Shown here in pieces: positions 1 to 64,000 of a stretch of DNA of 64,000 nucleotides (within the stretch, counting starts at the first letter, position 1; each line of letters starts with the position of its first letter). Under the pieces are notes generated by a model. That model saw only the letters and a program-made list of their open reading frames with translations, was not told where the DNA came from and made no database searches. Made by a program: the position numbers and the translations under genes. The stretch is taken from positions 79,835,627 to 79,899,626 of the forward strand of contig OX375878.1 in the NCBI GenBank assembly GCA_947359465.1, written 5' to 3'. The DNA comes from Metellina segmentata (lineage: Eukaryota; Arthropoda; Arachnida; Araneae; Tetragnathidae).

Positions 1-955
1 GCATGGTTCGAAAAAACCAAACCAAATCTTGTTCCAAAATGAACACTTAAACACTGGAGTCACTCCTCATAACAAAAATAAATATGGAAGTTTGTTACAA
101 TCTAAAACTAAGCAATGAATACTTTAAAAAAGCAAAAAGTTCTTGCTATTCAAAGCAAAAAAAAAATTGTAGACGAGATGTTAATAAATGGGTAGTTAGT
201 TTGATCAATGAAATTGTGTTGTGTGACTTTTAAAACAAGATTCATTCACTTATATATTTGGTCAATAATTTTCTTAAATAATTTTGAATATTGTTTAAAA
301 ATACTTGTTTCATTTAATTATTGAATTTTTTTACTATAATTTATTAATTTTAATTATTTATTTATTAATTAATTATTTTATTATATATTAACTTTTTATT
401 AATTTTAATAATTAATCAATAATTTATTGATACTATGTCGTATGTAAAATGTTGGCAAGAAATGCTACTTATGACTGGGTTACCAATGTTGGAGAGTATG
501 CATATAGAATGACAATGTCCCTTACTACAGAACAGTGCTCTATAGATAATGCAGGTGGCACTTGCCGATATCAATCCTTATATGAATGATTTAATTTTGT
601 TTTTTCTAACTCATCCTAAAGATTGTACAGCATGTTTTGAAACACCCTTAAATAGTTATACTTTGCACTTTTTAAACAGTATTTAAAAAAAAACTTTAAA
701 AGTTTAATCAAAAATTGGAAAATCATGAGGATTAACAAATTAAATTCAGAAAACTGGCATTTCAAATTTTCCTGTCATAACTTCTTACACAACATTAATT
801 ATTTATATTTTCTAACAAACATATTTTAGAACAATTTGTAAAATGAGGGAATGTATTACCTTTATCTTATATTATTTCCAAATGAAATATTTTGTTTTAA
901 AAATTGAATACAGTAAAAAAGCATAAAAAATTACTTATGCAACACGTCTACATAC
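1..955. other. AT-rich intronic sequence, downstream of glucosidase exon 5
   Basis: This stretch follows the donor site of the fifth alpha-glucosidase coding exon, so it should be intron 5. It is very AT-rich, especially around 240-430. I could not recognise the next GH31 exon on the minus strand, so the catalytic exons probably lie before base 1. The only island of more balanced composition is about 430-600, which holds a short open frame described separately. Confidence 0.5.
449..589 (+). CDS. Unidentified 46-residue open frame
   Basis: A short ATG-to-stop frame stands out from the AT-rich surroundings in composition. It contains a Cys-Ser-Ile-Asp-Asn-Ala-Gly-Gly segment and a second cysteine. 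I do not recognise the family. It lies inside an intron on the strand opposite the host gene, so it may be a remnant of a transposon or processed pseudogene, or chance. Confidence 0.15.
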   Translation: MLARNATYDWVTNVGEYAYRMTMSLTTEQCSIDNAGGTCRYQSLYE

Positions 956-1052
956 CCATAGCATTGCTATTCAGCAAGAAAACACCATGAGCACAGCCAT
1001 CTTCCTCTACATTCATGTAAAATGGATGAACACCATAGAGATTAGAAGAACT
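956..1052 (-). CDS. GH31 alpha-glucosidase coding exon 5
   Basis: This 97-bp exon is bounded by an AG acceptor and a GTATGT donor. It begins in phase 0 with three serines and encodes NLYGVHPFY and [10 protein letters not shown], both hallmark GH31 N-terminal domain motifs. An alternative acceptor two bases further on would run into a stop after two codons. The donor leaves phase 1. Confidence 0.88.
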
Positions 1053-7000: not shown

Positions 7001-10000
7001 CAGATTTTCTTCATCTTTTTCAAGGCTTAGGATTAAGGGTTCATATGCTTTTGGCAAGCCTATGAGCATCACTAGTGCAACTTCTCTATCTGTGAATGCA
7101 TATCCTCCATTAGCAAGCTTTCTGTGAATGTCGATTAGTCTTCCTAAGTAATCTTTAACTGGTTCCCCAGGCTTCATGATAACGTTGAAAAAATCACGTA
7201 TCAACTGCAAAATGTGCAAAAGTCCGAATTGGGTGTGCAGCTTCTTCAAAATGTCCCAAGCTTCGGCAGCACGGAGACACTCCCCTATATCGTCCAAAAA
7301 TGTGTCTTCAACTATTAGGAGTAATAGTGACAATGCTTCTTCGTTTTTTCTTCTTTCATCATTCGTCAGTTCCGGACCAAATCCAGGTTGAATGGCCTCC
7401 CAACAGCGTTTCTGGACTAACGCTGCCCTGGCGCGAATGCACCATGTGTGATAGTTCTCGCCATTTAGTTTGCAAAATCTGTGTTCTTCGTTAGCCGCCA
7501 TCATTTACATAAACAAAAGCTTTCTTCTAAAAAAATGCCTTTTACCTCTTCGGAAAGTCTTGTGTGTCTTCTATTTCAACGTTCCGACTTCTTCTGAACG
7601 TATTATTTCTTCAAGACGAAATCAATGAATGGCACTTCGCTTTTAAGTAAATGTTCATCAACAAATATCAATATTTGCTACTTCAAAAAAAAAAACAGTT
7701 CGTTTTTCAATAGATCTCTTTCTTAACGATGCTTCATAAAAAAAAAATGGTACTTTCGTTTCTTCAGTAAGAGTCCAACTCGTGCTGATAACGTGTTAGA
7801 TATTCAAATAAAAGTACCACAAAAATACGTTAATTCAAATTACTGAGATTTATTAAATATGCAAATATGAAATATATGAATGAAATGAATTTAGAACAGA
7901 TTAATAAATGACGATCACAAAAAAGGCACGATACATTTCTTCAAGTCATTTTTCAAAAGTCAACAATCATGCACTGTTGCCACATAGCAAAAGAGAAACT
8001 TACTTACAAGTATCAGTCAATCTATGTGGTTCGGACATAGAGCAGCATTTTCAACAAAACGTTCCGCAAATTTCAAATCTATAGAAATTTTCACTCTATT
8101 TTTAATGATTGTGAAGATAGAAACTTGGAATAAAGAATATAAAAGAAATAAATGCCAGTCAAAATTTTTTTGTTTTGTTTAGCTTTGTTGTTTGTGCTGA
8201 GGACATGAAAGGAAAAAATTAATTTAGAATCTGTGATCTCTTTACACTTTTGCCATTCTAAGGAAAACAAATAATAAATTAATTACAAAAACTACCTTAT
8301 CAGGGTTGCCAACCTTTTCAGAGCAGCTTCTGGAGCGTTCTCCTTAAATTTCAGGAGTTTTGAGGCTGCTTCAGGTGCAACGCGAAAATAAGGACAAAAA
8401 TAAAATATCTGCATATTTTTCTTTAAAAACAGTCATAAAATTCCCTATTAGCACAAATTATTTATTTTGAGTCTCAAATGCGGACGTTAAAATCCGGAAT
8501 TGTCCAAAATCTGGAAGTTTTGCTAACCAGAGTTTTTGTTTTTCCCACTTTTTTCCATCTTTCTGACAATTTTCAAAGAACAAGGAGGTAAGCCTGGACC
8601 TAATAGTTGAAACAACGCAAAATAACAGACATGTTCAGAGTAAATACCACACAGAAAAATTAGAAGATTTGCAAGTAAAATTTCTTGCATTGTATTAAAA
8701 ATTTCTATTTATAAATTATTGCTATTTATGTATCTATTTTAGTATTGCAAACACAAAATTCGCGCAGGGGAGGTTAGATTAAGGTTTTTTTGACAAAAAA
8801 ATGCAAATAATCCGAAATGGCTGAGGGCCGGAAGATTCCGGATTTTGGACTTTGTACTGTTTTAAGGATAAAAAATTACATGTATACATGAAAAGTTTTA
8901 TCCTTAAATTATAGAAAAAAATTCTAATACACAAATTCTTCGAAAAAGGAAAATTTTACCCTTTTCATAGGGGAAATTTCCCTTTACCCTGCATTGACTC
9001 GATTTCCGGAGTGAACCAAAGATTACACAGAGTTGCGAATTTTCGATGTTTTAGCGGCGAAACTCAGGAAGCTCCTGAGTACTTGGCAACTCTGCCTTAT
9101 AAATCCTTTAAAAACTAAAAAATGTTGTGCAAATAAAACCTTAATTAAAAACACTCAGCATCAGAAACTAAAGAGAGTCAATCAAAACATTGTACAGTCA
9201 CAACATTTAAAGGTTATGAAAGCAATCACCAAAATAGTTTTTCATGCACCAAATGTGTAATGATTCAATTAAATATGTTTATTTGTTATTGAGTTAAAAG
9301 CTGACAATGCTTTATGTCAAAAGATGTGTCCCGATATTATTGGTTACATGACAGTTTTTCTTTAATGATCAATTAAGCCAGTGATTCTCAACCTTTTTAA
9401 TCTCATAGCACACCATGGTTAACACGCCTTCGTCCAAAAAAAAATTCAAGGACTTTTCAAAACCAAAAATATTTTTTTCAAGGACCTAAAATTTTTTATA
9501 GCGACCTAAAGCAAAGCATGTGCAAAAGTTGTCAATTAAACAGAAAAATGTGAAAAATATATTTAAAAAAAAAAAAACACCAATTTTTTTTTTACTCTTT
9601 TTTAAACTTCTGACAGTCAAAGAAAAGAGGAAAGATTGTCATCAATTTTGGTTATAACTTGGATTTTCTTTCATCACAGAACCTGTGAATTTTTTTGCAA
9701 AGTAGGCTTTTCGTCTCAATGCTAACTATCAGGCTATTTGCACGCATATCAATTTCGGTCGTGCGGTAAAATATTGTACGATAAATTCTTTGGTGGCACG
9801 AGGAAGAGTATGGGAGCTTGACACATGGTTCGATCGACACAATCTTCGTTTTCGTTTTGCTCTCGTCCACGGCCACTACAGAAGATGGCTGTCGTGGTTT
9901 ATTTTGTTTGAGAAACAAAACAAATCCAAAGTTTTGACTGCGGTGTTACGGATTTTTTGTTCTCTGGTCCAAGTTTCTATCTTCTCGATCGTTAAAGATA

Positions 10001-24100: not shown

Positions 24101-27100
24101 TTAAAAACAATGATTTTCTTAAAGGTATCCGAACTTGTTCGATACCCTTTTTTTCATGTGGTATAGAAACATTTTAATGATATTTTTATGTTTAGTGCTA
24201 TTAAACAATAGAATTGGGCTATAAATGTTTAAAATATATATTAATAATTTTGTAAAAATGATAATTTTGTATGAAATTTTAAAGAAATTAGTCAACCAAT
24301 TTAATAAATTGATGCTACCAAAATAAACAAAATGCATTTTTCTAGGGAATTAACTAGAATCAAAAGGATATTTAAATAAACAAAATTTTTACATGCAATC
24401 GAAAAATAAATGTAAGATTTTTAATAGTTTTACAGTCCTGTTTCTTAAATAAATAACTATCATTTAAAAACTTTTCAACTAGGCATAATTATTCTATTTC
24501 CTTCCCTGGACAACATTATAAAGAACAAGTTCTCAAAGTTTTACGAGAATTCGTCAATAACTTTTTGTGTTATATCATTTGGAGTGAGGAAATAATGCAT
24601 AAATATTAATTTAGAGTAAAAATACACTCATGTCCATAAATTAAGGACAATGTCAGCTCCGGCAAATAAAGGTTCAGAAACAAAACAAACGTGACTTATT
24701 CATGAAGCCCATTTATTAAACAAAAGATAAAGAACAAAAAAGATGGTGTATGTATGATAACATTAAAAAAAAAACTACGATTTTTGCTCACTGGAGCAAT
24801 TACAAAAAATATCGATCTTACAAAAACTTAACATGACATGGTTGGTATGATGGTTAATACATTGTATGTCTCCCAGACGATGAAATACAATCCATACAAC
24901 GCCTAGGCATGCTGAGGATCAAATTATCAGCTGATCTTGGGGAATATAACTTCACTCAGCAAGCAATGGTCTCCAAAGTTCCGGTACACATGTAAAAGGT
25001 GGTTGATGGGCTGCAACTCGTCGGTCAAGCATGTTCCACACATGCTCTATCGGATTCAAGTCAGATGAGAATGCTGGCCATTCCATACGGGTGATATCCT
25101 CAGATTCAAGGCATTCGTTTACAATGTTTGCAATGTGAGGACGGGCGTTGTTATCCATAAACACAAATCCTGTGCCCATGGCACCCCTAAACATACGTAC
25201 ATGTTGTTCCAGAATGTTGTCCCGATAAATTTGGCCTCTCTTGGTTCCGATTTGAACATGTAGATCTGTTCTGGAGCCCAGTATAATTCCGCCCCAAACG
25301 AGCATTCCTGCACCACCGTAACGGTGTCGTTCAATGATGTTGTCTTGGAGGTAGCGGGTACCTGGCGGTCTCCATATGAACGTCCGCCGTGAATCAGACT
25401 GCAAATTAAACCTGGACTCGTCGGAAAACACCAGACATGCCCACTGTGACGATGTCCACAATTGCATGTTCTCTACTCCAGGCTAACCGCTGGCGACAGT
25501 GAGTTTCCGTGAGTGGAACACATCTGACAGGCCTGCGAGCATATAGACCAGCATGTCCCAAACGTCTATAAACGCTTTACCTTGAAACTGTCGTACTCGT
25601 GGCTGAAGATAGCTGACGAGAAAGGTCGGAAGCTGTGCTCCGTATGCTTCTTTTTGCAGTTACTGCCAAATACCGGTCGTCATTCGGCGTTGTAACTCGG
25701 GGGTGACCTGTACTGTAACGTCTACTGACATTTCCATCATTTTGGATTTGTTGCCAAAGCCTAGAGATGACACTTTGGGCGATTCCAAGTTCCACTGAAA
25801 TTTCGGTCTGAGTACGCCCACATTCCAGGCGGCCGATAATTCTACCACGTATAAAAATCATCGACATACGTCCTCTGCGCCATAATTATTCGGTTGTGGC
25901 ACTGAGCGGCTTAGAGAACGCTTGTGAACAATTTTACTTCTTTGCTACCATTCCTTATATACAAGTCTCTTACACTCTCGTCATTGTGACGTACTATCGG
26001 TGTCATCTGATGGCTTCCTGTAATTTGGATATTATTCTTGAAGATGTGTGCGATAATTCTACAGGTGAAATTTTTACTTTAGAGTTCGATTTCCATGTGA
26101 TTCTGAACTATCCTTAATTTATGGATATGAGTGTAGTTTGAAGCTTATCGTTTGCACTCTCCTTGTTTTTACTGTTTGTGTAAACAATTTTGTTTTTCAC
26201 TTCTCTTTAAAAATGATCAAAATACTTCCAAAAGAGAAACCATTCAAAGATTTGAGAAAACTTTCTAAAATTGTATTTGCATAAAAACGTAAAATCAAAA
26301 TTTTGACAGGTTGTTTGGTTTTTTAACGACCACTTCCGGTGTTTTCCATACCTATGAGGGTCGCGCGGAAAGTAATACCCGATTAAGCATGCGCACCACT
26401 GTGACATTGGCAGATGCACCGGTCAAGGTGAACCAGTTTTAGGGACTCATCTACTAACTGTTTACTGAATTACATTGCTTTATAACGGTTATTGTTGTTT
26501 TGGTAAGCAAATAAAACGTCCAAGAAATCGAGCATGCCGCCAAGTGTGAAGTGAGATCTGTGATCCGATTTTTAAATGCAACAAAATGTGCGACAAAGCG
26601 AAAGTTATAGTGAAATCAAAGCAGTGAAGGGTGATGTGATGGATGAATCATGTGTTCGTCGTTGGTGCCGAAATTTTAATGAGGAAAGAGAGAATGTCCA
26701 TGATGAGGAACGATATGGCCGTCCAAATGTCAGTACGGATGAGCTTTTCAAGTCTGTCGACAAATTCATCAAACAAGATCGACGTGTGACTTTGAATGAA
26801 ATTTTTGACAAATTTTACGTGTCTCGCACTATTACAAAGTGGTAACAGATTACCTCAAATGCAGAAAACATTGTGCAAGGTGGGTACCACGTATGCTCAA
26901 TGACGACCACAAAATCAAGCGAATGGCTGCAGTGTTAACCTTTTTGGAACGCTACTCAAATGAAGGAGATGCGTCTTTCTCATATTGTTACAGGAGATGA
27001 AACTAGGGTTTCTTATGCTACACCTGAAAGCAAACGTCAGTCTATGGAGTGACAACATGCTCGTTCACCAACCAGGCCAAAAAAGTTTAAACAAGGAAAC

Positions 27101-30100
27101 TCGACTCACGGAATATTGCTTATTGAGTTTATGCTACGGGGAGCCTGCAAAAATAGCGATGCATACTGTGAGACATCGAAGAAGCTACGGCGTGCAATTC
27201 AGAATCGAAGACGCAGCATATTGTCTAACGGCGTGGTCCTCTTACATGTTGTCTAGCGGCGTTGTCTTCTTACATGACAACACACGGCCTCACGCAGCCG
27301 CGAAAACGCAACAGTTCATCTGCAAGGTTCTTTGGGAAATTCTTGACCCCCCCCCCCCATTTAATCCGGACTTAGCCCCCAGTGACTTTCATTTGTTCGC
27401 TAAACTTAAAGTATTTCTGGGTGAGAAATATTTTACGAACGATGAGGAGCTTACTGACGTTGTTACTGTTTCTTTCTCAATGGACTGGTGGCAGAGGAGT
27501 ATGACGCTGGTATTCAAAAGCTACTGACGTTGTTACTGTTTCTTTTTCAATGGACTGGCGGCAGAGGAGTATGACGCTGGTATTCAAAAGCTACTGACGT
27601 TGTTACTGTTTCTTTCTCAATGGACTGGCGGCACAGGAGTATGACGCTGGTATTCAAAAGCTACTGACGTTGTTACTGTTTCTTTCTCAATGGACTGGTG
27701 GCACAGGAGTATGACGCTGGTATTCAAAAGCTACTGACGTTGTTACTGTTTCTTTCTCAATGGACTGGCGGCACAGGAGTATGACGCTGGTATTCAAAAG
27801 CTACTGACGTTGTTACTGTTTCTTTCTCAATGGACTGGCGGCAGAGGAGTATGACGCTGGTATTCAAAAGCTACTGACGTTGTTACTGTTTCTTTCTCAA
27901 TGGACTGGCGGCACAGGAGTATGACGCTGGTATTCAAAAGCTACTGACGTTGTTACTGTTTCTTTCTCAATGGACTGGCGGCAGAGGAGTATGACGCTGG
28001 TATTCAAAAGCTACTGACGTTGTTACTGTTTCTTTCTCAATGGACTGGCGGCACAGGAGTATGACGCTGGTATTCAAAAGCTACTGACGTTGTTACTGTT
28101 TCTTTCTCAATGGACTGGCGGCAGAGGAGTATGACGCTGGTATTCAAAAGCTACTGACGTTGTTACTGTTTCTTTCTCAATGGACTGGCGGCAGAGGAGT
28201 ATGACGCTGGTATTCAAAAGCTACTGACGTTGTTACTGTTTCTTTCTCAATGGACTGGCGGCACAGGAGTATGACGCTGGTATTCAAAAGCTACTGACGT
28301 TGTTACTGTTTCTTTCTCAATGGACTGGCGGCAGAGGAGTATGACGCTGGTATTCAAAAGCTCGTCACAAGGCATGACAAATGTTTAAATTTGCAAGGGG
28401 ACTATGTATAAAAGTAATACAAGGTTTGAAAATGTAAAGTAAAAAGTGTGTTTCAGAAAAAATTTTATTGGTCTGTATTTTATTTAAAAACGGGTATTAC
28501 ACTCCAAACGACCCTCGTACTTCCGGTTTTTTTCCCGCCTTGATTAAAATCTTAATATCTTTACAACTAATTAACTTAGAGAGTAATCAAATTTTTTGTG
28601 GAAAGTAAGGAATGTATTTTGTGGAAAGTATCAAATAAGATCAAAAACCTTTTTTGGAATTTTTGGTCAAAAATAACATTTTTAACGTGTTTGGATACTT
28701 TAAAAATGCTGTCAAATCGATTTGTCTTTTCTTTATAAATGGTAATTGGTGACCTGTTTAGGTCGGTATCAGTCATTCAATTTTAAAACGATTTTTTTAT
28801 TAGACGTGACACAAAGTGGAACAATGAAGAAAAAATGTATTCGCTTTTAAAAACTTTCTGATGAAAATATCTTTTAAATTAATGTTTAATCCTATTCTTA
28901 ACGATAGTGAAATTCTAAAATATCGTTTGATCGATACAAGAGTGTCACAAGTAAAAAAATATTGGTAAGTAGATTAGGTGCGAGAGTATGTACCGTAAAT
29001 TTTTACGAATTGTGCAATTCTACAGGATAAGAACTTACGAAAGGAAATTTCTAATCCTCTCAAAAATAGTGTTACCATAGTAATAGTGTTCACCATACTC
29101 CAGTTTGTAACTTTAGCAAGAGTGCGATGTGTGTAGAATGATGATACGAAAGACAAAAGGTGATTATATATTCTGGTTATTTCTTCAATCTATAGTTCAC
29201 CGATTCTACCCGAGTAAGGTCGGATAATTTTGTAAATTGGGCAATAAAAAGTTATGGACTTATAAGCCAATCATTCGGCGGTGTTACCACTGTGGTTATC
29301 CAAAAGTATTCGGGGCTTGATTTGAGAAATGGTTCCAGAAGAAACGATAAAGACACATCGTCTTTAAAAAATAGGAACATAATTTATAGCCACTCTTTTA
29401 AGTTGGTAGTTCAATTTCTATCGCACTGGCGGACCACATTTGACTATTGGTGTGACGCTCCGAAATCAATCTCTTAGTGAAAGATACGATTCGCCTCGTA
29501 ATTTTGAACCATGGTCAGATGACGAGTTCAACACCTGATCTGGCACCCCACTCTCCAGACTTCCACTTCATGCCAACGCGAGGTTATTTGAGACCGATTT
29601 TGATAGATTTAACGTTCTCCAGTCCCCACATACACGGCGGTCTTTGATTGGATCGATTTTCGAACTCACAACCCTCCAATTTATAATCCTCGACTCTACC
29701 ACACTGTTAAGATCCATGTGCTAGTCTATGCACAACGAAATAAATCTTTTTCTGTACCAGTATCAGGAATATAATTTGTCAGAAACACTGTTATAAGCAG
29801 CTGTAACGTTATGTTTCCCAGAAAGACTGTTATACAGTAGAACATCATGATAACGGACTAATAGGGGCTAAAGATTGTCCGTTTTAATGGAAGTCCGGTT
29901 TATAGCAAATAATTTTTTAGGGGTGTAATGCAATAGGGTGTACAACATTGAAAGTTCAGTAGGTAGCTATAAAAAAGTGGCCTTTTTTATGTGAAATAAA
30001 AACAGCCTTCAGCATGGCTTGAATTGAAAAAGATGTGTACGTATGTACACTGCATTAATCTTTAGAACAAGAAGGTCCTGGGCTATGTTGATTGCTTACA

Positions 30101-44500: not shown

Positions 44501-47500
44501 TTTAGTCAAATGGCGATGACGACAATCCTTTTCGCATCCCTAAAACGAAACGAAAAATATCGTACAAATTTCATAGATTAACTGTGCACTGTTTTAATAT
44601 CAAATTGAGTTTATATGACTGTGGAATTTGGTAGGAATACTTTAAAATATTGTTACAGTTAATGGAATAAAGTCATGCGACAATCGGAAGCTTCTGTCAC
44701 ACTTGTAACGCTGATATTAAGGAGGAAACACGGAATGATCAGTAAAAACGAATATTTAATCATTCACTCTTATGAGGTATATCAAAATATGTGGGTTGAT
44801 GTGACTAAGACATGATATGGCGTTGAAATGAGGATGAAAACAGAAGAGTTACAACAGTTTTCGAAGTACTGAAAAGTAAATATATGAAATGTGGAGTAAA
44901 TATATTATTTATTTGAAATGAATTTACTGTTATTGAAAATCATATGGATAATTTATTACAGCATTTACACATCAATGATGAATTTAACACAGGATATAAA
45001 AGCGGATATTCGAGTTAACAGAATTAGCTTAGATTATCAGGAGTTAATAGTACGAAAGCAACAATTATGCATCGAGAAATATTTGAGCAATAAGCTTCAA
45101 TTATTTGTGAAAACAACTTGGGTAGCAAGGTTGCGTTTAAAAATGAAGATAAAAACAAGCAACAAAAATTAGGAATGTCTTTAGCATGGTATAAATGGAC
45201 TTGAAAAAATTCAGGTTAAAGGGGTATAGTCTAAAGTAGGTATGACGTAAATGATCGAAGTATAGTTGCTTGATTGGGTTTCATGGGTTATATTTGGCCA
45301 TAATACGCCAAGCACAATACAGACACACAAGACAGTTGATGACATACACACAAGGATGGTTTTACTGTAATGAAAGAGAGATATACAGACAGAGACGAAT
45401 TCAACGTTACACATGTTATGGGAAGGGTGAACTGAAATTGAGGAGCATGGATAAGTTCGATAGTTTTTAAATCCTACAACTCTCTCTCTCTCTCTCGCGC
45501 GCGCGCAATTGGTTAATGCAGTTGGCATAGATTGCAGAATGGACATGGACGAATTGAACATGGTTCAATTCCTGGTTCAAGTAGGTCCATGGTTCAAGAT
45601 CGTTGCTGATAGTTTTTTGAAGCTATAAGACCGACATAAGGAGTTGTCTTTAAAAAATATTGGTGTCAGATCGATGTTGTTTAAAATATTGATGGAAGTT
45701 GCAATGATCTCAATGATTATCTCACCAGAATTGAATATTGGGACGGAATTCCCATTGATGTGATGAATTCACTTTTCTTCATGCATGTTCCCCACGGTTC
45801 TCCCAGTCTGGTAGTCTTAGCGAGTGTCACCTCCACAGCAGACATATCTAAAGGCCTGATGTTAGTGCCGTACTCCGCAACGAAAGGTAGATCGTGTGGG
45901 TCGTGAATGACCACTCGGACTCCTATTTCACGAGTCAGAAGCTCTACTTTTTGCCGAGCTGTGACGTGAAGAATTATTTGAAGACCTATGGAAGAAAGTT
46001 TGTTATATACGGGAAACTTAACCAAAAATTAACCTCCTAATATTTTACTATCATCCTCAGATAAGTCAAGATTCTTAGAATTGTAGTAATAAGTGGAAAA
46101 ATAATGCCTACAATCTCAGTCTATCAAAACGTACTTCAAGGTTGAGATTCGTTGCACTGTTACATATACACTCTATAACAAAAAAAAAATCGACTCACCA
46201 AGAAGGAATCATCCGAATGCTTTGAAATTTCGTATGCAGAAATGTTTTGACCAAATATGCAAATGATTAAAATTTGGTGTCCAATGAATGAATAGTACGA
46301 TCTCCAGCGCATCGGAACTGCGCATCCAGCAGATGTATATGTTACCGTTAAAGTATGAAATCCGTTATTTTATAGAATACCTAGTTATTCCATGAAATAA
46401 CTGATCGTGTCCGTTAAAGTGTAAAACTCTCTTGTATTTCATGGTTTAACTAGTTATTTCATAGAATAATGATCTGCAGCCCGTTAAAGTGTAAAATAAT
46501 CTATATCATATATCTTGTTGTTTGGTGCCCCATGTATATTGCAGTCGGACAATGGAAGAGAATTTCGTAACAAACTTATTGATGACTTAAAAGTAACTTG
46601 GCCAGAGCTTAAGATCGTGCATGGCAAACCAATACATAGCCAAAGCCAAGGCAGTGTTGAGAGAGCCAATCAGGACATAGAAATTGCGTTGACGACTTGG
46701 ATGCAAGACAACCAGTCAACTTCGTGGAGTAACGGGTTAAAATTTATCCAGTTTATGAAGAACAGAGCGTTCCATTCTGGTATTAAAAGGTCCCCCTACG
46801 AGGCTATGTTTGGTTGCGCAGCTAGAGTTGGACTGTCAACAACTGCCATTCCGAAGGAAGCACTTAATTCGTTGGTCGACGAAGATCAATTACAACATAC
46901 TTTGACTGCAATGAATGTTTCTTCTCAACCTGATAATGAAAAAGTAGTTGAACAAACAAAAGTAGTTGATAATGAAAACTTGTTGTAACAAATGATTTTA
47001 TGGTACGTTTCCATAAATACCATTTATACGCTGCATAAATTAGATAAATTGCTTCTTTTTCATTTTAATTGTCTATCAATAGTTTAATTTCATTTTAGAT
47101 AAATTGTCTATTTTACACTTTAACTGTCTTTCATTAGTTAATTTATAGAATACCTAGTTATTTCATAGAATAACTAGTTAAAGTGTCAAATTAATAACAT
47201 ATTACACACTTAAACGGACACGATCAGTTATTTCATGGAATAACTAGGTATTCTATGAAATAACTGCATTATATACTTTAACGGTAACATATATAAGGAG
47301 ATGTTCTTGAACTGTTGTTAAAAATTTCTGCTGCATTGCGATTTAGGATACCTTTCAACGACAGAAAAAATGCCTCGCAGCAGGATTCGAGATCATTACG
47401 AGCAACTTTCAGAGTTTGAAAGAGGTCGTATCATTGGATTGAAAGAGGCAGGTTGGGCAAATCGGAGAATCGCTCGTCATGTGAGTCGAAGCGATGCGGC

Positions 47501-50500
47501 GATTAGAAGATGCTGGCAAGAGTGGGTGGACTATGGCAGATTTCAGCGTCATGATGGAAGTGATCGACATAGGGCCACAATAGATCGCGAGGACAGAGTG
47601 ATTGTCAGATCAGCTGTCACAGCGCCTGATTCATCGCTATCAACCATCAGTCGTGCGACCCACACACGAGTGTCCACCATGACCATTCACAGACGGCTGG
47701 GAGAGCAAAATCTACGCTCGTACCGACCGTTACGCCACCTGCCACTCACGCCTGCACACTGTCGAGCCAGATTACGGTGGTGCTTGGCTCGATCAGGCTG
47801 GAATGATGCTGACTGGAACGTATAGTCTTTAGCGACGAATCTCGCTTCCAACTGTGTCCTGACGATCATCGAAGACGTTTCTGGAGACGTCGAGGGCGGC
47901 GTGCCGGTCCTGCTTTCACTATTGCACGCCACACGGGCCCTCAACAAGGAGTTATGATCTGGGGTGCCATTTCCCTTGATAGCCGGACCCCTTTGGTCGT
48001 CATCAGAGGTACACTTACTGCACAGCGGTACGTTGACGACATTCTATTACCTATTTTGCTACCGTTCCTTTCGCAGTACCCTGGGCTTATTTTTCAGCAA
48101 GACAATGCCATACCACATACGGCACGTGTTGCTACGAACTGTCTTCAAGCTTGTCAAACATTTCCTTGGCCAGCCAGATCACCAGATCTCTCTCCCATCG
48201 AGCATGTCTGTGATATGATGGGAAGGCGACTGCATCCGGTAGGGAATGTTGATGACGTAGTCCGATATATATAATTGGAGCAAATTTGGCAATACATACC
48301 GCAGGAGATCATCCGGGAGCTTTATCGGTCTATGCCACGTAGTGTGGCAGCTTGCATCCAGGCTAGAGGCGGGTCAACACCTTATTGAGCTCGTTACTGT
48401 AACTCTGAAATAAATCATTCAATTGTTCTGAAATTTTAATCATATTCTATTCTGTACATAATTTTCCCTATCCACCAATTTTTGTCTCCATCGGACAACT
48501 CTTTTTTGGTGCGTCGATTTTTTTGTTATTGAGTGCATATAGAGGAGGACGGTAGCTAAAGAGAGGTTATTTAAAGCCCGATAGTAAAAATTTTATTGGT
48601 TTAAACTCAGCCAAACTTGATGTTAGTATTACTTAGATCACGGGGTTTCTATTCCTAAAATATAGTTAAGATTTTCGCTACCATAGAAAAGAATACCGTT
48701 ATATGCTCTAATTTCGAAGTAAATTAGGCATATAGGAAGTACAGAAAGTTAATATTTTACAGAATTTCTTTTATCATCACTTACAGATGTGATTCAATGT
48801 ATTTTGCCTTGCAAGAGTTCTATAAAATACATTCTCTAAAGAGAATTTGTACAACAGTGCTGTAGATATCCATTGATTTGATTGCAATGAAGCGTTATTA
48901 GCTCCTTAAAAGAAGTTGAATAATCCACGTGTCCATGGTATATCAAGTTTTTTTTATATGACACAACAACCTAGAGTCAGAGGTGGGGAGGAGATATCAG
49001 GCGAACGAGTTGGTCAGTCACCGTCGCTAACGCTCTCTCAAATAACTGGCATGTCTTTGAAATGCTGGCCGAATGACAAAATAAATTTTCGCCGAAAATA
49101 TTCTAATAGTAAAAAAGTTTGTTAATCCACCTCAGATGAAACCAAACTCAGCTTACTTTTCGTATAAATTGCCACATACCATTGACTTGACAGAAAAACC
49201 TAACAGGAATAATACGCACCAATGCAAGTTTCTACCAGGTTTTCTTTCAGATATGAACTATTAAGTTATACCATTTTGCACATTGCACGCAATGTGTATA
49301 CAGCACGGGAATGGGTATACAGCATTTTCGATAAAATGGAACTAATGGAGAATTTGCTAAAGCGACACTTAATAGAGGGAATAGCCAAAGAACGTGAAGA
49401 GGCCCATACTTTCAATAATTTCCGTACCTTTTGCACGCACGCGATCTGCCTTTTAGTTCCTTGTTTATGAATCTCGATGATGGAACCGGCCCTGTTCGTG
49501 GGGTGGGGAGCACTCAGACTATAAGAAAAATATTTCTGAATATATAATAATTCTATAATTTCTGAAGCAGTTTTTCCGCCTATTACTCTAGTAGTCTATA
49601 AGTGGGCTGGTTGTTTTAAGGTATGACACTAACTGAACTTCTAAAAATGTTTTACGAATTTCTGAAATTGAAAACCATAACGTTAGGTTACTTTAGCACA
49701 GCACATGTGATAAACCCTCGGCTAGAGTGATTTCCTGTGGTGTCTTGCGAGACTGCCAAACTTCAGCCACCTCTTCTGTAACGTTCTCCCCACAGGTGAT
49801 TACGAACACAGATAGGTTATAAGAACAGTTGTTCTTGTGTTCTGGTTGCTACTGTTCTATTAGACGAAGATCGATGTATGACAGTGCTTGTGTTCTGATT
49901 AGGGACGCGACATCGATGTCGATGTTTAATAAAAAAACATCGTATCGATGTTTTATAAAAACATTAATGTATTTACCATCGATGTATTGGTGCCGAAGTT
50001 TTTTTAACATCGATGTTTACACCTGTCGATGTTTTTGCGTTGTCGATGTTTTATTTTTAAATAAAAAAAGTACCATTATAAAAATTAAAAAAATAACCAA
50101 ATAACATAATTTTTATAATCAGTAAATTGAATATACTTTTAGACCAAAGTGGCCAAGAGTGAAGGGTCTGAAAAGTAAGGATGCGACATCAATGTCGATG
50201 TTTTCATACATCCATGTTTTATAAAAAACATTGTTGTATTTACCATCGATTTATTTGAGCCGATGTTTGTTTAACATCGATGTTTTAACATTGTCGATGT
50301 TTTATTTTTGAATGAAAAAAGCACCATAGTAAAAATTAACAAAAATAACCGTGCAACTAAGTATTTGTCAGTGATGGCGACATCCGTTCCATCAGAAATA
50401 GTTTTTGCCCTAACAGGTGGGATAGTTAATGAAAAAAGAAGTAAGCATAAGGTGGAGAAAGGCGAAGTTGGCAGTGTCTCTCTATTCTTGGCCACTACAA

Positions 50501-58938: not shown

Positions 58939-58939
<1 letters not shown>

Positions 58940-59306
58940 GTAGGAATACTAAACAACGGTAGTTGTCTACTAGTCTGGAAAGAACTCATTATAAGAGCAA
59001 CGAGACTGGTAGGAGTCAGTTGCATTGTAGTAGGAATGCAAGGCAAGACTGTCACGAGCCATTCACATTCTGGTATTCAGTTACGAGAAAATTAATAGAA
59101 CAGACACTTTTTCCCCTGGACGCCATTGAGAGCTGACGTATTTTTTCCGAGCAGAGACGACTGCTGCCGATAATGACGGAGCTTTTTTGAAATATAACTC
59201 AACTGTACATAATAATTGTATATATTTATTCATTAAATGTCAATGTGCTGTAAGATTCGAAGTCTTTAATATAGACCTTACCAAACAGAACAACACGAAT
59301 CTTACA
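58939..59306 (+). repeat. LTR 1 of the Gmr1-like element
   Basis: 368 bp, TGTAGGAATACT to GAATCTTACA. I found no difference from LTR 2 at 62287-62654 when comparing the two by eye. Confidence 0.95.
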
Positions 59307-59679
59307 AAAAATGAGGGTTCGGCCGCGATGTGAAAAACTGTTGACGACCGCGACGATTCTCCTCCTTCGTACGAGGGCGTGAACCCCTTCCGCTCCAACT
59401 AAGGGTAGCGACGACGGATTAGCAGACCCCGAAAGCAGTGACGATTGAACCGGCCGGCGGAATGTTTTGACTCCTTATGCAAACCTGGACTTGTGTTTTA
59501 ATCATCTGCAAGAACAGTTTCATGACTTCTCCTGACGTGGTGCTGATGATAGACTGAAACGACAAAAAAGAAAACGCGTAGACGAAAAAACGCGTAGACG
59601 AAAAAGACGAGTTGACGGAAAAGACGGATAGAAGGAACTTTCGAAACTGTGAGTACAGAATTTTGTTTTAATTGATGAC

Positions 59680-61239
59680 ATGGCATATTTAACTAAGGCC
59701 CGAAAAGCAGATTTGCTAACATTGATTGACGAATTAGGCCTAATAGTGCCAGCGAATCCCAAAGTAGCGCAGTGCTCGAAACTTATAATAGATTCTGAAA
59801 ATTATGACGAGGAGATAACAAAAAATCTGTTGAGTGTTATTAGAACTGAACGCGAAGAGAAAATTGAAGCCGAAAAACGCGCAGAGAAAATTGAAGCCGA
59901 AAAACAAGCCCGCGCAGAGAAAATTGAAGCCGAAAAACGCGCAGAGAAAATTGAAGCCGAAAAACGCGAATTCGAATTAAGGAAACTCGAAATCGAAACT
60001 GCTAACAGACAAGGCAACAGTTATGGTAAAACTACCAGCCTATACAATAACGATTTATTGAAATTGATTAACCGTTACGAGACGAATAAGGATATTAGCT
60101 GTTATTTAACTTTATTTGAAAGACAGATTAGTCGTATCGAAATACCAAAAACGGAATGGGTTACACATTTGTTGGGGTTACTCCCATTGGATTTGGCTAA
60201 TCTTATCACGCGTGAGCCTGACGAAAAGGCTAATGACTATGAAAATGTCAAGAGATTATTGTTGAAACGTTTTAAATTAAATCCGGAACAATTTAGGCAA
60301 AATTTCCTTTCGCATAGAAAAGAAGCGTCTTCTACTTGGAATGACTTTGCTCATGATCTGAAAAATTTCTTTGAAGAATGGACGAGTGGGTTGGAAGTAT
60401 CAAATTACCAAGACCTTAAAGAACTCATGATTACCGATCAACTAAAACGAAAAATACCCAATGACGTTCGAGACCATTTTATAGACGAGCTACCGAAAAT
60501 AACGAAAATAGACCAACTCGTCAATAAATTAGACGAATATGAAGCGGCTCGATGTCATTTAAAACCCAATAGAGATTCGAAAACATCAGACGATAAATAT
60601 AAGAAGCGTTTCAATAGGGATTTTGACAAATTAAAGCCTCGATCTTTCGTGCGCCCTGAACAAACTAACACCAATCATATAAAATGTTACAACTGCAATG
60701 AATATGGACATAAGTCGATAAATTGTGAAAAGAAAACTGAGGATGTGAGATGCTTTAAATGTAAAAATTATGGGCACAAGGCCGACGTGTGTCCCAAAAG
60801 AGATGTAAATAGAACTTTAATTAATAGCCCTTTTAATTCTCGTACTAAGCTTAGAAAATATGTTGAAATGTGCGGGAAAAGATCTAATGCGCTAATCGAC
60901 ACAGGAAGTGATGTGTCAATGATAAAATATGAATTTTATGTTGAAATTGGATCCCCAAAATTGAGTTTTGATAATGTGACTTTAATGGGTATAGGAGGAG
61001 AACACATTTCTCTTCTAGGTTTCTTTTCTACAGAAATTATTATTGATGAATGCATTATAGTTACTGATGTTTATGTTTTAAAAAATTTACCTGATGATAT
61101 TGTTCTTGGGTTCGATTGCATAAATAAGTTAAATCTTACTTTATCAGAGAGCGGAATTCATGTTTTGAGCAAACGCGATAATTTTCGAGTGAATTACGCA
61201 AGAATTGTTAATTTAGCCGAACACTTCAGATTCAACTAA
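59680..61239 (+). CDS. Gag-protease protein of the Gmr1-like element
   Basis: An intact 519-residue frame. Seen in order: an N-terminal segment MAYLTKARKADLLTLIDELG; a charged coiled coil at about 55-110 made of four near-identical EKIEAEKRA repeats (27-bp DNA repeats at 59857-59965); a SCAN-like capsid domain at about 190-290 (RQNFLSHRKEASSTWNDFA, then ITDQLKRKIPNDVRDHF); two CCHC knuckles at 336-349 and 358-371; and a retropepsin-type protease with DTGS at 407-410. The frame ends at 61239, where an RT would normally follow. The start is the first ATG after the leader. A second identical copy begins at 63028. Confidence 0.92.
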   Translation: MAYLTKARKADLLTLIDELGLIVPANPKVAQCSKLIIDSENYDEEITKNLLSVIRTEREEKIEAEKRAEKIEAEKQARAEKIEAEKRAEKIEAEKREFELRKLEIETANRQGNSYGKTTSLYNNDLLKLINRYETNKDISCYLTLFERQISRIEIPKTEWVTHLLGLLPLDLANLITREPDEKANDYENVKRLLLKRFKLNPEQFRQNFLSHRKEASSTWNDFAHDLKNFFEEWTSGLEVSNYQDLKELMITDQLKRKIPNDVRDHFIDELPKITKIDQLVNKLDEYEAARCHLKPNRDSKTSDDKYKKRFNRDFDKLKPRSFVRPEQTNTNHIKCYNCNEYGHKSINCEKKTEDVRCFKCKNYGHKADVCPKRDVNRTLINSPFNSRTKLRKYVEMCGKRSNALIDTGSDVSMIKYEFYVEIGSPKLSFDNVTLMGIGGEHISLLGFFSTEIIIDECIIVTDVYVLKNLPDDIVLGFDCINKLNLTLSESGIHVLSKRDNFRVNYARIVNLAEHFRFN

Positions 61240-62194
61240 AATTCAAACCGAAACTCATCTCGAAGTAACTAATCGTCTGGAACCAAACACTAAGTTGGAG
61301 ACAAAACGAACCATAGCAGAGGATAACAAATTTCTAAATCCAATTCCTAAAGAGGACGTTCCATTATACACTTATCACATTGATTTCATAGGTCCGTTAC
61401 CTTCAACATCTAAGAACTATCAGCATATCTTCACGGTAGTAGACGCATTCACAAAATTCACTTGGTTATATCCTACCAAATCTACGACATCAGGTGACGC
61501 AATAAATAAACTCAAACAACAACAAAATAGTTTTGGAAATCCTGCGAGGATAATCTCGGATAGAGGATCCGCTTTTACATCTAAAGAATTTACAGATTTT
61601 TGTTGCGAAAACGGGATTGAACACCTAAAAATCACAACAGGAATCCCAAGAGGCAATGGACAAGTAGAAATAATGCACAAAACCCTGATTCCAGTGTTAT
61701 CCAAACTTTCAATTGAAGAACCGATCAAATGGTTCAAACACGTTGACGCCGTACAAAGAATACTCAATAGTACAACCTCCAGAAGCACAAGATGGACACC
61801 CTTCGAACTTTTGACAGGTGTGAAAATGCGAAACAAAGAAGATCTCAAGATAGTCCAGCTTTTAGAAGAAGAATATACTGAAGTTTTTCTAGAGAAGAGG
61901 AAGAAATTAAGAGACGATGCCAAAGAGAATATCCTAAAAATTCAGGAAGAGAATAAAAGAACGTATGATAAGAAGAGGAAGAAACCTCATCAATACAAAG
62001 AGGGCGATCTTATTGCTATTCAGCGGACTCAATTTGGTGTCGGAATGAAATTACGACCGAAATTCTTAGGACCATATCGAGTGAAGAAAGTGAAACCCCA
62101 TGATCGCTATGACGTTGAGAAAGTTGGAAACCATGAAGGACCGAACTTGACGTCGACAGCAGCTGACCATATGAAGTCGTGGTTCAATAACTAA
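61217..62194 (+). CDS. Truncated integrase of the Gmr1-like element
   Basis: This frame overlaps the end of the Gag-protease frame (open from 61217) and lacks its own upstream ATG near the start, so expression would need a frameshift or a downstream start. The integrase core is complete: YHIDFIGPL with the first Asp, ARIISDRGSAF with the second, and GNGQVEIMHKTL with the Glu; then NSTTSRSTRWTPFELLTG and a C-terminal domain with RPKFLGPYRVKK. The zinc-binding N-terminal domain is missing. The join from protease to integrase core looks like an internal deletion. Confidence 0.88.
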   Translation, partial: PNTSDSTKIQTETHLEVTNRLEPNTKLETKRTIAEDNKFLNPIPKEDVPLYTYHIDFIGPLPSTSKNYQHIFTVVDAFTKFTWLYPTKSTTSGDAINKLKQQQNSFGNPARIISDRGSAFTSKEFTDFCCENGIEHLKITTGIPRGNGQVEIMHKTLIPVLSKLSIEEPIKWFKHVDAVQRILNSTTSRSTRWTPFELLTGVKMRNKEDLKIVQLLEEEYTEVFLEKRKKLRDDAKENILKIQEENKRTYDKKRKKPHQYKEGDLIAIQRTQFGVGMKLRPKFLGPYRVKKVKPHDRYDVEKVGNHEGPNLTSTAADHMKSWFNN

Positions 62195-62286
62195 TACTGA
62201 ATCAATGTATTCCCAGATACTGTTTGTGTTTTTTTTTAGGTTTGTCGTGTTCCTTTCGAGGACGAAAGATCATCAGGATGGCCGAT

Positions 62287-62654
62287 TGTAGGAATACTAA
62301 ACAACGGTAGTTGTCTACTAGTCTGGAAAGAACTCATTATAAGAGCAACGAGACTGGTAGGAGTCAGTTGCATTGTAGTAGGAATGCAAGGCAAGACTGT
62401 CACGAGCCATTCACATTCTGGTATTCAGTTACGAGAAAATTAATAGAACAGACACTTTTTCCCCTGGACGCCATTGAGAGCTGACGTATTTTTTCCGAGC
62501 AGAGACGACTGCTGCCGATAATGACGGAGCTTTTTTGAAATATAACTCAACTGTACATAATAATTGTATATATTTATTCATTAAATGTCAATGTGCTGTA
62601 AGATTCGAAGTCTTTAATATAGACCTTACCAAACAGAACAACACGAATCTTACA
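62287..62654 (+). repeat. LTR 2, shared between tandem units
   Basis: 368 bp with the same ends and length as LTR 1. It closes the first unit and opens the second, so the array is LTR-internal-LTR-internal. Confidence 0.95.
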
Positions 62655-64000
62655 AAAAATGAGGGTTCGGCCGCGATGTGAAAAACTGTTGACGACCGCG
62701 ACGATTCTCCTCCTTCGTACGAGGGCGTGAACCCCTTCCGCTCCAACTAAGGGTAGCGACGACGGATTAGCAGACCCCGAAAGCAGTGACGATTGAACCG
62801 GCCGGCGGAATGTTTTGACTCCTTATGCAAACCTGGACTTGTGTTTTAATCATCTGCAAGAACAGTTTCATGACTTCTCCTGACGTGGTGCTGATGATAG
62901 ACTGAAACGACAAAAAAGAAAACGCGTAGACGAAAAAACGCGTAGACGAAAAAGACGAGTTGACGGAAAAGACGGATAGAAGGAACTTTCGAAACTGTGA
63001 GTACAGAATTTTGTTTTAATTGATGACATGGCATATTTAACTAAGGCCCGAAAAGCAGATTTGCTAACATTGATTGACGAATTAGGCCTAATAGTGCCAG
63101 CGAATCCCAAAGTAGCGCAGTGCTCGAAACTTATAATAGATTCTGAAAATTATGACGAGGAGATAACAAAAAATCTGTTGAGTGTTATTAGAACTGAACG
63201 CGAAGAGAAAATTGAAGCCGAAAAACGCGCAGAGAAAATTGAAGCCGAAAAACAAGCCCGCGCAGAGAAAATTGAAGCCGAAAAACGCGCAGAGAAAATT
63301 GAAGCCGAAAAACGCGAATTCGAATTAAGGAAACTCGAAATCGAAACTGCTAACAGACAAGGCAACAGTTATGGTAAAACTACCAGCCTATACAATAACG
63401 ATTTATTGAAATTGATTAACCGTTACGAGACGAATAAGGATATTAGCTGTTATTTAACTTTATTTGAAAGACAGATTAGTCGTATCGAAATACCAAAAAC
63501 GGAATGGGTTACACATTTGTTGGGGTTACTCCCATTGGATTTGGCTAATCTTATCACGCGTGAGCCTGACGAAAAGGCTAATGACTATGAAAATGTCAAG
63601 AGATTATTGTTGAAACGTTTTAAATTAAATCCGGAACAATTTAGGCAAAATTTCCTTTCGCATAGAAAAGAAGCGTCTTCTACTTGGAATGACTTTGCTC
63701 ATGATCTGAAAAATTTCTTTGAAGAATGGACGAGTGGGTTGGAAGTATCAAATTACCAAGACCTTAAAGAACTCATGATTACCGATCAACTAAAACGAAA
63801 AATACCCAATGACGTTCGAGACCATTTTATAGACGAGCTACCGAAAATAACGAAAATAGACCAACTCGTCAATAAATTAGACGAATATGAAGCGGCTCGA
63901 TGTCATTTAAAACCCAATAGAGATTCGAAAACATCAGACGATAAATATAAGAAGCGTTTCAATAGGGATTTTGACAAATTAAAGCCTCGATCTTTCGTGC
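62655..64000 (+). mobile_element. Second tandem unit of the Gmr1-like element, cut by window end
   Basis: This repeats 59307-60652 at a constant offset of 3348 bp. I saw no substitution or indel where I compared them, including the leader with its GACGAAAAAACGCGTA repeats. The unit continues beyond the window. Confidence 0.95.
63028..64000 (+). CDS. Gag-protease protein, second copy, partial
   Basis: Copy of the frame at 59680, running from its ATG to the window end, about 324 residues: N-terminal segment, EKIEAEKRA coiled-coil repeats and the SCAN-like domain. The zinc knuckles and protease would lie beyond 64000. Confidence 0.93.
   Translation, partial: MAYLTKARKADLLTLIDELGLIVPANPKVAQCSKLIIDSENYDEEITKNLLSVIRTEREEKIEAEKRAEKIEAEKQARAEKIEAEKRAEKIEAEKREFELRKLEIETANRQGNSYGKTTSLYNNDLLKLINRYETNKDISCYLTLFERQISRIEIPKTEWVTHLLGLLPLDLANLITREPDEKANDYENVKRLLLKRFKLNPEQFRQNFLSHRKEASSTWNDFAHDLKNFFEEWTSGLEVSNYQDLKELMITDQLKRKIPNDVRDHFIDELPKITKIDQLVNKLDEYEAARCHLKPNRDSKTSDDKYKKRFNRDFDKLKPRSFV

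What the first reader, a model, noticed from the sequence alone, without database searches (positions are those of the whole stretch)
58939..64000. RT-less Gmr1-like LTR element in a perfect tandem array
LTRs and internal regions repeat at an exact 3348-bp offset. The unit keeps Gag, protease and an integrase core with all three catalytic residues but has lost RT, RNase H and the integrase zinc domain. The near-identical copies imply recent amplification by a helper, or LTR-LTR recombination, of an integrase-retaining non-autonomous element. That combination is unusual: most non-autonomous LTR elements (TRIM, LARD) lose integrase too.
Basis: partly seen in the sequence, partly recalled or inferred. 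Interest (0 to 1): 0.75.

Follow-up and report, generated by a model that had tools for sequence, protein, structure and literature searches.

The report
RT-less retrotransposon family with tandem arrays
A jumping element in an arthropod-like genome has lost its copying enzyme but keeps its shell, protease and most of its integrase as one fused protein; it has spread to about two hundred places, presumably with a nearly identical complete element as helper, and at the spot we were given it has piled up head to tail six times.

Summary
In detail: the unit is 3348 bp and the second copy matches 1714 of 1714 bases to the window end. In the genome the array is six units with seven identical LTRs.

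A probe across the RT/RNase H/zinc-domain deletion has 212 matches. Twenty-seven fetched loci look like separate young insertions (LTR pairs 0-2 mismatches, mostly 4-bp TSDs). A full-length relative with 98.6-98.9% identical LTRs has RT before integrase, so "Gmr1-like" is wrong.

The deletion is net in frame: in 17 of 27 loci Gag-protease-integrase is one open frame of 817-864 codons. The array's units are frame-broken.

The closest precedent in mechanism is mouse IAP 1Delta1. A smaller derivative without the gag frame or catalytic core also has 106 matches, so those parts are not required in cis for spread. Tandem shared-LTR sets recur in the family (by spacing 94, 110). Helper role and fused protein are inferred. 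Verdict: genuine, a new variant of a known kind.

The parts
58939..59306 (+). LTR of unit 1 (368 bp, TGTAGGA...TCTTACA); lies in a TA repeat
   Evidence: LTR ends fixed by single dispersed copies with matching flanks; 98.6-98.9% identical to the LTRs of full-length relative L029
59307..59679 (+). leader up to the Gag start codon (placed by similarity to relatives); primer binding site not identified
   Evidence: 98.1% to parent L029; Gag start as in relatives
59680..61239 (+). Gag-protease frame (519 codons), CCHC knuckles and aspartic protease; ends early because of a frame break
   Evidence: relatives in spiders
61213..61239 (+). frame break; the exact 40-mer over it is in all six array units and in none of 27 dispersed loci or the two parents
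61328..61330 (+). deletion junction: parent L029 2558 joined to 4393, with one base (61329) that matches neither side; RT, RNase H and the integrase H2C2 zinc domain are missing
61330..62194 (+). integrase catalytic core (codons of D at 61382, D at 61559, E at 61667) and C-terminal SH3-like domain
62195..62286 (+). 3' tail up to the next LTR; no clean polypurine tract seen
   Evidence: 94.7% to parent tail; sequence printed
62287..62654 (+). LTR shared by units 1 and 2
   Evidence: identical to LTR 1
62655..64000 (+). leader and part of gag of unit 2; the array goes on beyond the window to six units (C6:79894565-79915020)

Best explanation
This is a non-autonomous Ty3/gypsy LTR element made by one internal, net in-frame deletion of a full-length element still present in the same genome.

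The full-length partner reads Gag-protease-RT-RNase H-integrase as one frame of about 1440 codons. The derivative reads Gag-protease-integrase core as one frame of about 820-860 codons. Its RNA keeps the partner's LTRs, leader and 3' end, so the partner's RT and RNase H copy it and the partner's integrase (perhaps helped by the fused protein) inserts it, with 4-bp A/T-rich target duplications.

Shown: one common junction, dispersed insertions with near-identical LTR pairs, and a coding partner with almost the same LTR. Inferred: that the partner is the helper, that the fused protein is made, and that it does anything.

The six-unit array in the window is a secondary event at one insertion: LTR-to-LTR unequal exchange (or integration of a concatemer) of a frame-broken copy, later enlarged two units at a time. 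This part is inference from the pattern of variants.
For: Junction probe: 212 matches with up to 3 mismatches, control 0; the 100 places listed all match exactly. Exact junction in 17 of 17 loci L012-L028, in six array units and in 10 of 10 loci L033-L042; these loci were picked by searches that included the junction, so this is partly by construction.

LTR pairs: 0-2 mismatches in 15 of 15 dispersed pairs (10 of them none; two have small gaps) and in 10 of 10 (some over shorter lengths, one with 20 gap columns). The same 4 bp flank both ends in 16 of 17 loci and 7 of 10; most lie in TA repeats, and the clear cases outside them are TAAA (L016, L025, L026, L036) and TTAA (L022).

Parent L029: LTRs 98.9 and 98.6%, leader 98.1%, Gag-PR 97.0%, linker 99.1%, integrase 99.4% DNA identity to the window unit; frame 1446 codons stop to stop; left-boundary probe 165 matches. 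The deletion takes residues 539-1150 of its frame, which hold YMDD 765, DALSRYP 1024, HEKGHF 1101 and CVPCIL 1135 (meaning of the motifs recalled).

Fused frame open in 11 of 17 loci and 6 of 10.

Array: seven LTRs, all 100% to the window LTR. Four variable sites among the six units, one alternating T-G-T-G-T-G, two shared only by units 5 and 6, one private to unit 5.
Against: No expression, protein or mobility data. Copies are young, so open frames are expected by descent. In the integrase part, ten loci from the probe listing show 18 non-synonymous to 6 synonymous singletons and 1 to 1 shared, close to neutral, so selection on the integrase part is not shown. All samples are biased: L012-L028 to high integrase identity, L033-L042 hand-picked from exact junction matches. 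L019 and L020 may be one insertion copied. That the helper is this partner rather than another gypsy family is not shown. The array's flanks are TA repeats, so its TSD cannot be read. A protein search with the fused frame found no clear protein of this architecture in another species among the 120 listed of 701.
Confidence: 0.86

Rival explanations
1. The fused Gag-protease-integrase protein is an active cis-acting tool: it binds its own RNA, co-assembles with the partner's particles and gives the RT-less copies an edge, as reported for the Gag-Pol fusion of mouse IAP 1Delta1.
For: The deletion is net in frame and the frame is open in 17 of 27 loci. In 11 open-frame copies Gag varies with few amino-acid changes (singletons 10 non-synonymous to 8 synonymous, shared 7 to 6; pN/pS 0.31 and 0.29), and shared changes in protease plus linker give 0.21. 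Integrase core and C-terminal domain model well with residues 1-40 disordered and match foamy-virus integrases. Junction matches (212) outnumber parent left-boundary (165) and mini-junction (106) matches. Precedent: passages of PMC7411935 and PMC6466679.
Against: Match counts of different probes are not rates, and some matches sit in tandem rows. The mini derivative spreads without the gag frame or catalytic core. Integrase changes look neutral, and singletons in protease plus linker give pN/pS 1.93. The Gag signal comes from small numbers in copies chosen for open frames and could be inherited from, or exchanged with, the parent. One in three random deletions is in frame, so the frame could be luck.
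Confidence: 0.2
2. The array is an assembly artefact (a repeated or looped graph path) of a single RT-less insertion.
For: LTRs are identical and units nearly so; no reads could be examined. N runs (gap or withheld stretch, not distinguishable here) lie next to two family copies, L038 and L040.
Against: Units differ at four sites in an ordered way that one copied path would not give. The exact 40-mer over the frame break is in six of six units and in none of 27 other loci. Two other tandem sets of different unit length were read in sequence (L044; C1), more by spacing only; all come from the same assembly.
Confidence: 0.15
3. The array was inserted as a ready-made concatemer (for example from circular or multimeric DNA) rather than grown by LTR-LTR exchange at the locus.
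For: Flanks are TA repeats on both sides and the array begins and ends with complete LTRs; passages of PMC11899658 leave both routes open for plants.
Against: The pairwise pattern of variants fits stepwise enlargement, though one of the variants (61671) also occurs in dispersed copy L012, so conversion between copies is possible.
Confidence: 0.2
4. Each RT-less copy lost RT independently in place.
For: None found.
Against: The 100 listed places of the junction probe match exactly, including the base that fits neither side of the parent.
Confidence: 0.01

Closest known systems
Mouse IAP 1Delta1 subfamily
   Same: Non-autonomous deletion derivative of a full-length LTR element, with a deletion that fuses gag to pol in one frame; depends on full-length elements in trans; source of most new IAP insertions (passages of PMC7411935 and PMC6466679).
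   Different: IAP is an endogenous retrovirus; its 1.9-kb deletion removes part of gag and pol. Here Gag and protease are whole and RT, RNase H and the integrase zinc domain are gone, in a Ty3/gypsy element. Any effect of the fusion in cis is untested here.
TR-GAG elements (plants)
   Same: LTR element with Gag (and protease) but no RT.
   Different: TR-GAG is defined by Gag alone or Gag plus protease (passage of PMC6022998); this keeps the integrase core as well.
LARD and TRIM
   Same: Non-autonomous LTR elements presumed to be moved by a helper.
   Different: Both are defined there by carrying no domain, with 2000 bases as the divide. The 3.7-kb RT-less element codes; the mini derivative is TRIM-sized but still holds an integrase C-terminal frame.
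BARE-2
   Same: A named non-autonomous class that keeps coding parts (class named; its content is recalled: Gag start lost, pol kept).
   Different: There Gag is lost and the enzymes stay; here Gag stays and RT is lost.
Tandem LTR-retrotransposon structures (rice and other plants)
   Same: Head-to-tail internal regions sharing LTRs, near-identical units (passages of PMC11899658).
   Different: Six units here, and 14 mini-junction places in a row elsewhere by spacing; a non-plant genome.
Gmr1
   Same: Ty3/gypsy.
   Different: Gmr1 has integrase upstream of RT (passages of PMC8220671 and PMC3587641); the parent here has the standard order.

Membership tests
Ty3/gypsy (Metaviridae) | protease-RT-RNase H-integrase order in the autonomous member | tested here: met
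   L029 frame: Gag-PR, then YMDD 765, DALSRYP 1024, HEKGHF 1101, CVPCIL 1135, then integrase (motifs recalled); of the best 120 of 1027 relatives, 102 have RT, RNase H or H2C2 upstream of integrase, 18 show none, 0 downstream
Gmr1 clade | integrase upstream of RT | tested here: not met
   definition from passages
blastopia/Mdg3 lineage | RT or integrase tree placement | not tested
   only a source name of one relative (P0001); no reference set was at hand
TR-GAG | only Gag, or Gag and protease, between the LTRs | tested here: not met
   integrase core present; definition
LARD | 2000 bases or more without coding domains | tested here: not met
   definition
TRIM (mini derivative) | under 2000 bases without coding domains | tested here: inconclusive
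   1539 bp in L043, but a 147-codon frame with the integrase C-terminal part remains; L045 also holds a 92-bp piece of gag
IAP 1Delta1-like fusion derivative (works like, not member) | deletion creating one fused gag-pol frame | tested here: met
   not met in the array's own units
IAP 1Delta1-like fusion derivative (works like, not member) | needs proteins in trans from full-length copies | not testable with these tools
   inferred from the absence of RT
IAP 1Delta1-like fusion derivative (works like, not member) | fusion protein helps in cis | not testable with these tools
   no expression or mobility data
Tandem LTR-retrotransposon structure | n internal regions and n+1 LTRs in one orientation | tested here: met
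   6 internal regions, 7 LTRs
Tandem LTR-retrotransposon structure | outer TSD | tested here: inconclusive
   both flanks are TA repeats

The most novel reading that the evidence does not exclude
The Gag-protease-integrase fusion is a selected, trimmed polyprotein: a derivative that builds its own particles and carries its own integrase core but rents only RT and RNase H, so that the labour of one LTR element is split between two co-evolving families, while shared-LTR tandem growth turns their copies into incipient satellites.
Probability: 0.15. Interest if true: 0.75.

Novelty: new variant of a known kind. Interest (0 to 1): 0.5.

Why it matters
The non-autonomous LTR classes named in the passage I saw either carry no domain (TRIM, LARD), stop at Gag and protease (TR-GAG), or are BARE-2. 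A Gag-protease-integrase element without RT fits none of them. One genome here holds a coding parent, an RT-less fused derivative and a mini derivative, all with nearly the same LTR and, where measured, recent. That gives a natural comparison of what retained proteins do for a derivative's spread. The recurrent shared-LTR tandem sets, from two units up to fourteen places in a row by spacing, give a series for how LTR elements become satellite-like.

Tried and rejected
Gmr1 assignment: rejected by domain order. Programmed frameshift in the window unit: no X-XXY-YYZ heptamer was reported in 61150-61260, and 17 of 27 dispersed loci have one frame, so the break looks like a lesion of the array copy. 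Relaxed integrase: the window copy differs at 3 of 61 conserved columns, inside the 0-6 seen in 30 relatives; one of the three (R to I) is not in units 2, 4 and 6, nor in 25 of the 26 dispersed loci that could be read at that site (L012 has it, L033 could not be read). Selection: integrase part near neutral, Gag pN/pS about 0.3, protease plus linker 0.21 for shared and 1.93 for single changes; numbers small, samples biased, so I draw no conclusion. RT-less proteins in other spiders (P0043, P0127, P0129, P0139, P0141, P0200): some put Gag next to integrase parts, but they are gene predictions that may have skipped sequence, so they are not counted. Viral contigs: no relative found (the window's own genome may be left out there). 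tRNA and Rfam at gathering cut-offs: nothing in the window. Host: best single integrase hit is named Lasius niger, most others are spiders; a guess from a contig length (P0223) was compared with four loci only (53% at best to the parents) and stays undecided. PMC3701649 (passages) was of no use. Literature: searches returned no paper; others gave listings. I saw no report of an RT-less Gag-protease-integrase class in those ten listings or the passages read; most subscription papers are not in that library.
Full report
WHAT IS THERE. Bases 58939-60652 of the window recur at 62287-64000 without a difference (1714 of 1714). The period is 3348 bp. Nothing else in the 64 kb matches the unit's DNA; proteins of its relatives also match, at 21-39% identity in the matches shown, a copia element and an integrase fragment elsewhere in the window. 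The unit holds Gag with two CCHC knuckles, a weakly scoring protease with a DTGS motif, and an integrase core. RT, RNase H and the H2C2 domain were not reported. The integrase residues D, D and E, the last two 35 residues apart, are present. AlphaFold2 gave mean pLDDT 81.4 and pTM 0.60, with residues 1-40 below 50. Foldseek's best matches are foamy-virus intasome chains (E 1.4e-19, but TM only 0.47 over the whole chain); the foamy-virus catalytic core alone (3dlr) fits with TM 0.89 by target length and 2.2 A.

WHAT THE WINDOW CANNOT SHOW. The second copy ends inside gag, so from the window alone only one RT-less unit is seen. In that unit the integrase frame is shifted against Gag-protease: Gag-protease stops at 61237-61239, the integrase frame is closed at 61214, and its first ATG (61673) lies behind all three catalytic residues. 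As it stands, no ATG-started frame of this unit includes them.

THE GENOME. The window is G000:C6:79835627-79899626 of a 1.67-Gb, 173-contig assembly. The array runs C6:79894565-79915020: six units, seven LTRs. All seven LTRs match the window LTR at 100%. The units differ at four positions. One alternates T-G-T-G-T-G along the array, two are shared only by units 5 and 6, and one is private to unit 5. That order suggests enlargement by pairs of units. The exact 40-mer over the frame break is in all six units and in none of 27 dispersed loci or the two parents.

THE FAMILY. A 59-base probe across the junction has 212 matches (115 forward, 97 reverse; up to 3 mismatches; reversed control 0); the 100 places listed are all exact and include the six array units. 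I fetched 17 dispersed loci (L012-L028) out of 34 non-array matches of an integrase-plus-linker search that scored 40 of 1725 candidates, and ten more hand-picked from the probe listing, none of them among those 40 (L033-L042). Both searches included the junction, so its presence in 27 of 27 is by construction; what they add is structure. L015 lacks part of its 5' region and L020 the end of its 3' LTR; L019 and L020 share a flank and may be one insertion copied. LTR pairs have 0-2 mismatches in 15 of 15 measured pairs (10 with none; L015 and L020 not measured) and in 10 of 10 (some over shorter lengths or with gaps). The same 4 bp flank both ends in 16 of 17 loci and 7 of 10 (in one of the seven the LTR end is two bases off). 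In the other three of these ten the flank is N (two) or does not match next to a damaged LTR (one). Many of these flanks are TA repeats; the clear cases are TAAA four times and TTAA once. Gag-protease-integrase is one uninterrupted frame in 11 of 17 (818-855 residues from the Gag Met) and in 6 of 10 (817-864 codons stop to stop). If L019 and L020 are one insertion this is 16 of 26.

THE PARENT. Searching with the RNase H/H2C2 stretch of relative P0001 gave 150 scored matches (of 7172 candidates), many in frames of about 1400-1490 codons. Two of the four loci fetched from these, L029 and L030, are the full-length form of this very family; L031 and L032 are other gypsy families at 65-69% integrase identity. 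Against L029 the window unit is 98.9 and 98.6% (LTRs), 98.1% (leader), 97.0% (Gag-protease), 99.1% (linker), 99.4% (integrase) and 94.7% (tail) identical; against L030 the LTRs are 97.8 and 97.6% and the leader 90.4%. The deletion runs from L029 2559 to 4392, 1834 nt, with one base at the joint that fits neither side, and no microhomology. The net change of 1833 nt keeps the frame. It removes residues 539-1150 of the L029 frame. A probe across the intact left boundary has 165 matches. A probe in the integrase core has 430 matches, somewhat more than 212 plus 165. Seventeen RT-less sequences (L015 left out, array unit 1 in) lie 0.61-1.23% from the two parents in a 1307-nt stretch, while the parents differ by 1.07% from each other. 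The split is therefore young and lies within the parent's own diversity.

OTHER DERIVATIVES. An LTR-start probe has 1502 matches; among the 100 listed, several pairs lie about 1.2 kb apart. Fetched examples L043, L044 and L045 share a second deletion (parent positions about 716 to 4667) leaving LTRs, leader and the integrase C-terminal part; L045 also holds a 92-bp piece of gag. Its junction probe has 106 matches, a number of them in tandem rows. In L044 two such units share LTRs. L046 has a third deletion (about 734 to 3364). Probe places also show tandem spacing elsewhere: 14 mini places in a row on C11 near 25.66-25.68 Mb, and three on C6 near 111.81 Mb; three parent places exactly 5126 apart on C4 near 69.44 Mb; and three units of a form with a deletion in gag on C1 near 139.93 Mb, read in sequence. 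Except for C1, L044 and the window's array, these are judged from spacing only.

HOW IT WORKS. Shown: one deletion junction in many places, and insertions of the deleted form with LTR pairs and short TSDs. From established knowledge of LTR elements this needs reverse transcription and integration, and the element has no RT. Inferred: the partner with nearly the same LTR, leader and 3' end is the source of RT. Open: whether the fused protein is made or useful. Mouse IAP 1Delta1 is the precedent for a Gag-Pol fusion that helps in cis yet needs Gag and Pol in trans (passages). Against a necessary role is the mini derivative, which has neither the gag frame nor the catalytic core. In the integrase part the sample of ten shows 18 non-synonymous and 6 synonymous singletons (shared 1 and 1), near the neutral ratio (about 680 to 181 sites); the 17 top loci show 3 and 3 singletons, 2 and 0 shared. 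In 11 open-frame copies Gag shows 10 to 8 singletons and 7 to 6 shared changes (pN/pS 0.31, 0.29), and protease plus linker 7 to 1 singletons (1.93) and 3 to 4 shared (0.21). The Gag figures hint at constraint, but the copies were chosen for open frames and the variation may come from the parent, so this does not decide the role of the fused protein.

THE ARRAY. Shared-LTR tandems are described as common in plants, with exchange between LTRs and complex insertion both left open (passages of PMC11899658). I favour exchange at the locus followed by pairwise enlargement. Assembly error is less likely, given the ordered variants and the recurrence, but no reads were available and all sets come from one assembly. 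One unit variant (61671) is also found in dispersed copy L012, so gene conversion between copies cannot be excluded.

BEYOND THIS GENOME. A search of the protein collection with the fused frame gave 701 proteins, 120 listed; nearly all carry RT or RNase H domains by their Pfam columns, and the one that covers the whole query part (P0200, Trichonephila clavipes, 41%) still holds a piece of RNase H and is a gene prediction. I therefore claim the RT-less architecture for this genome only.

VERDICT. It is a helper-dependent (inferred) Ty3/gypsy deletion derivative with an unusual set of retained domains, in a family with several derivatives and recurrent tandem sets.

Noticed in passing
G000:C11:25663587-25678437 (probe places): Fourteen mini-derivative junctions in a row, 1.09-1.18 kb apart: a possible LTR-element-derived satellite array.
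   Followed up: no
L044 (C2:41517728-41520700): Two mini units with three LTRs, head to tail.
   Followed up: partly
L047-L048 (C1:139927000-139942999): Three tandem units of a form lacking about 0.5 kb inside gag (parent 1128-1643) but matching the parent from there through RT to integrase.
   Followed up: partly
G000:C4:69436880, 69442006, 69447132: Three parent left-boundary places exactly 5126 apart, so probably full-length units in tandem.
   Followed up: no
window 59851-59968 and copies: A short repeat coding for a charged EKIEAEKRA-like stretch of Gag differs in length between copies.
   Followed up: partly
window 3195-8056: Complete-looking copia element on the minus strand, one frame of 1332 codons, with LTRs of at least 267 bp at 97%.
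   Followed up: no
window 27312-28521: Tandem repeat of 70-bp period, fourteen registered copies, nine of them (reference included) at 98% or more.
   Followed up: no
window 24952-25482 and 47322-48274: Frames that look like Tc1/mariner-type transposases (recalled from reading the translations; not searched).
   Followed up: no
P0127, P0129 (Araneus ventricosus): Predicted proteins with Gag-protease joined to an integrase C-terminal part without RT or catalytic core; could be other derivatives or gene-model artefacts.
   Followed up: partly
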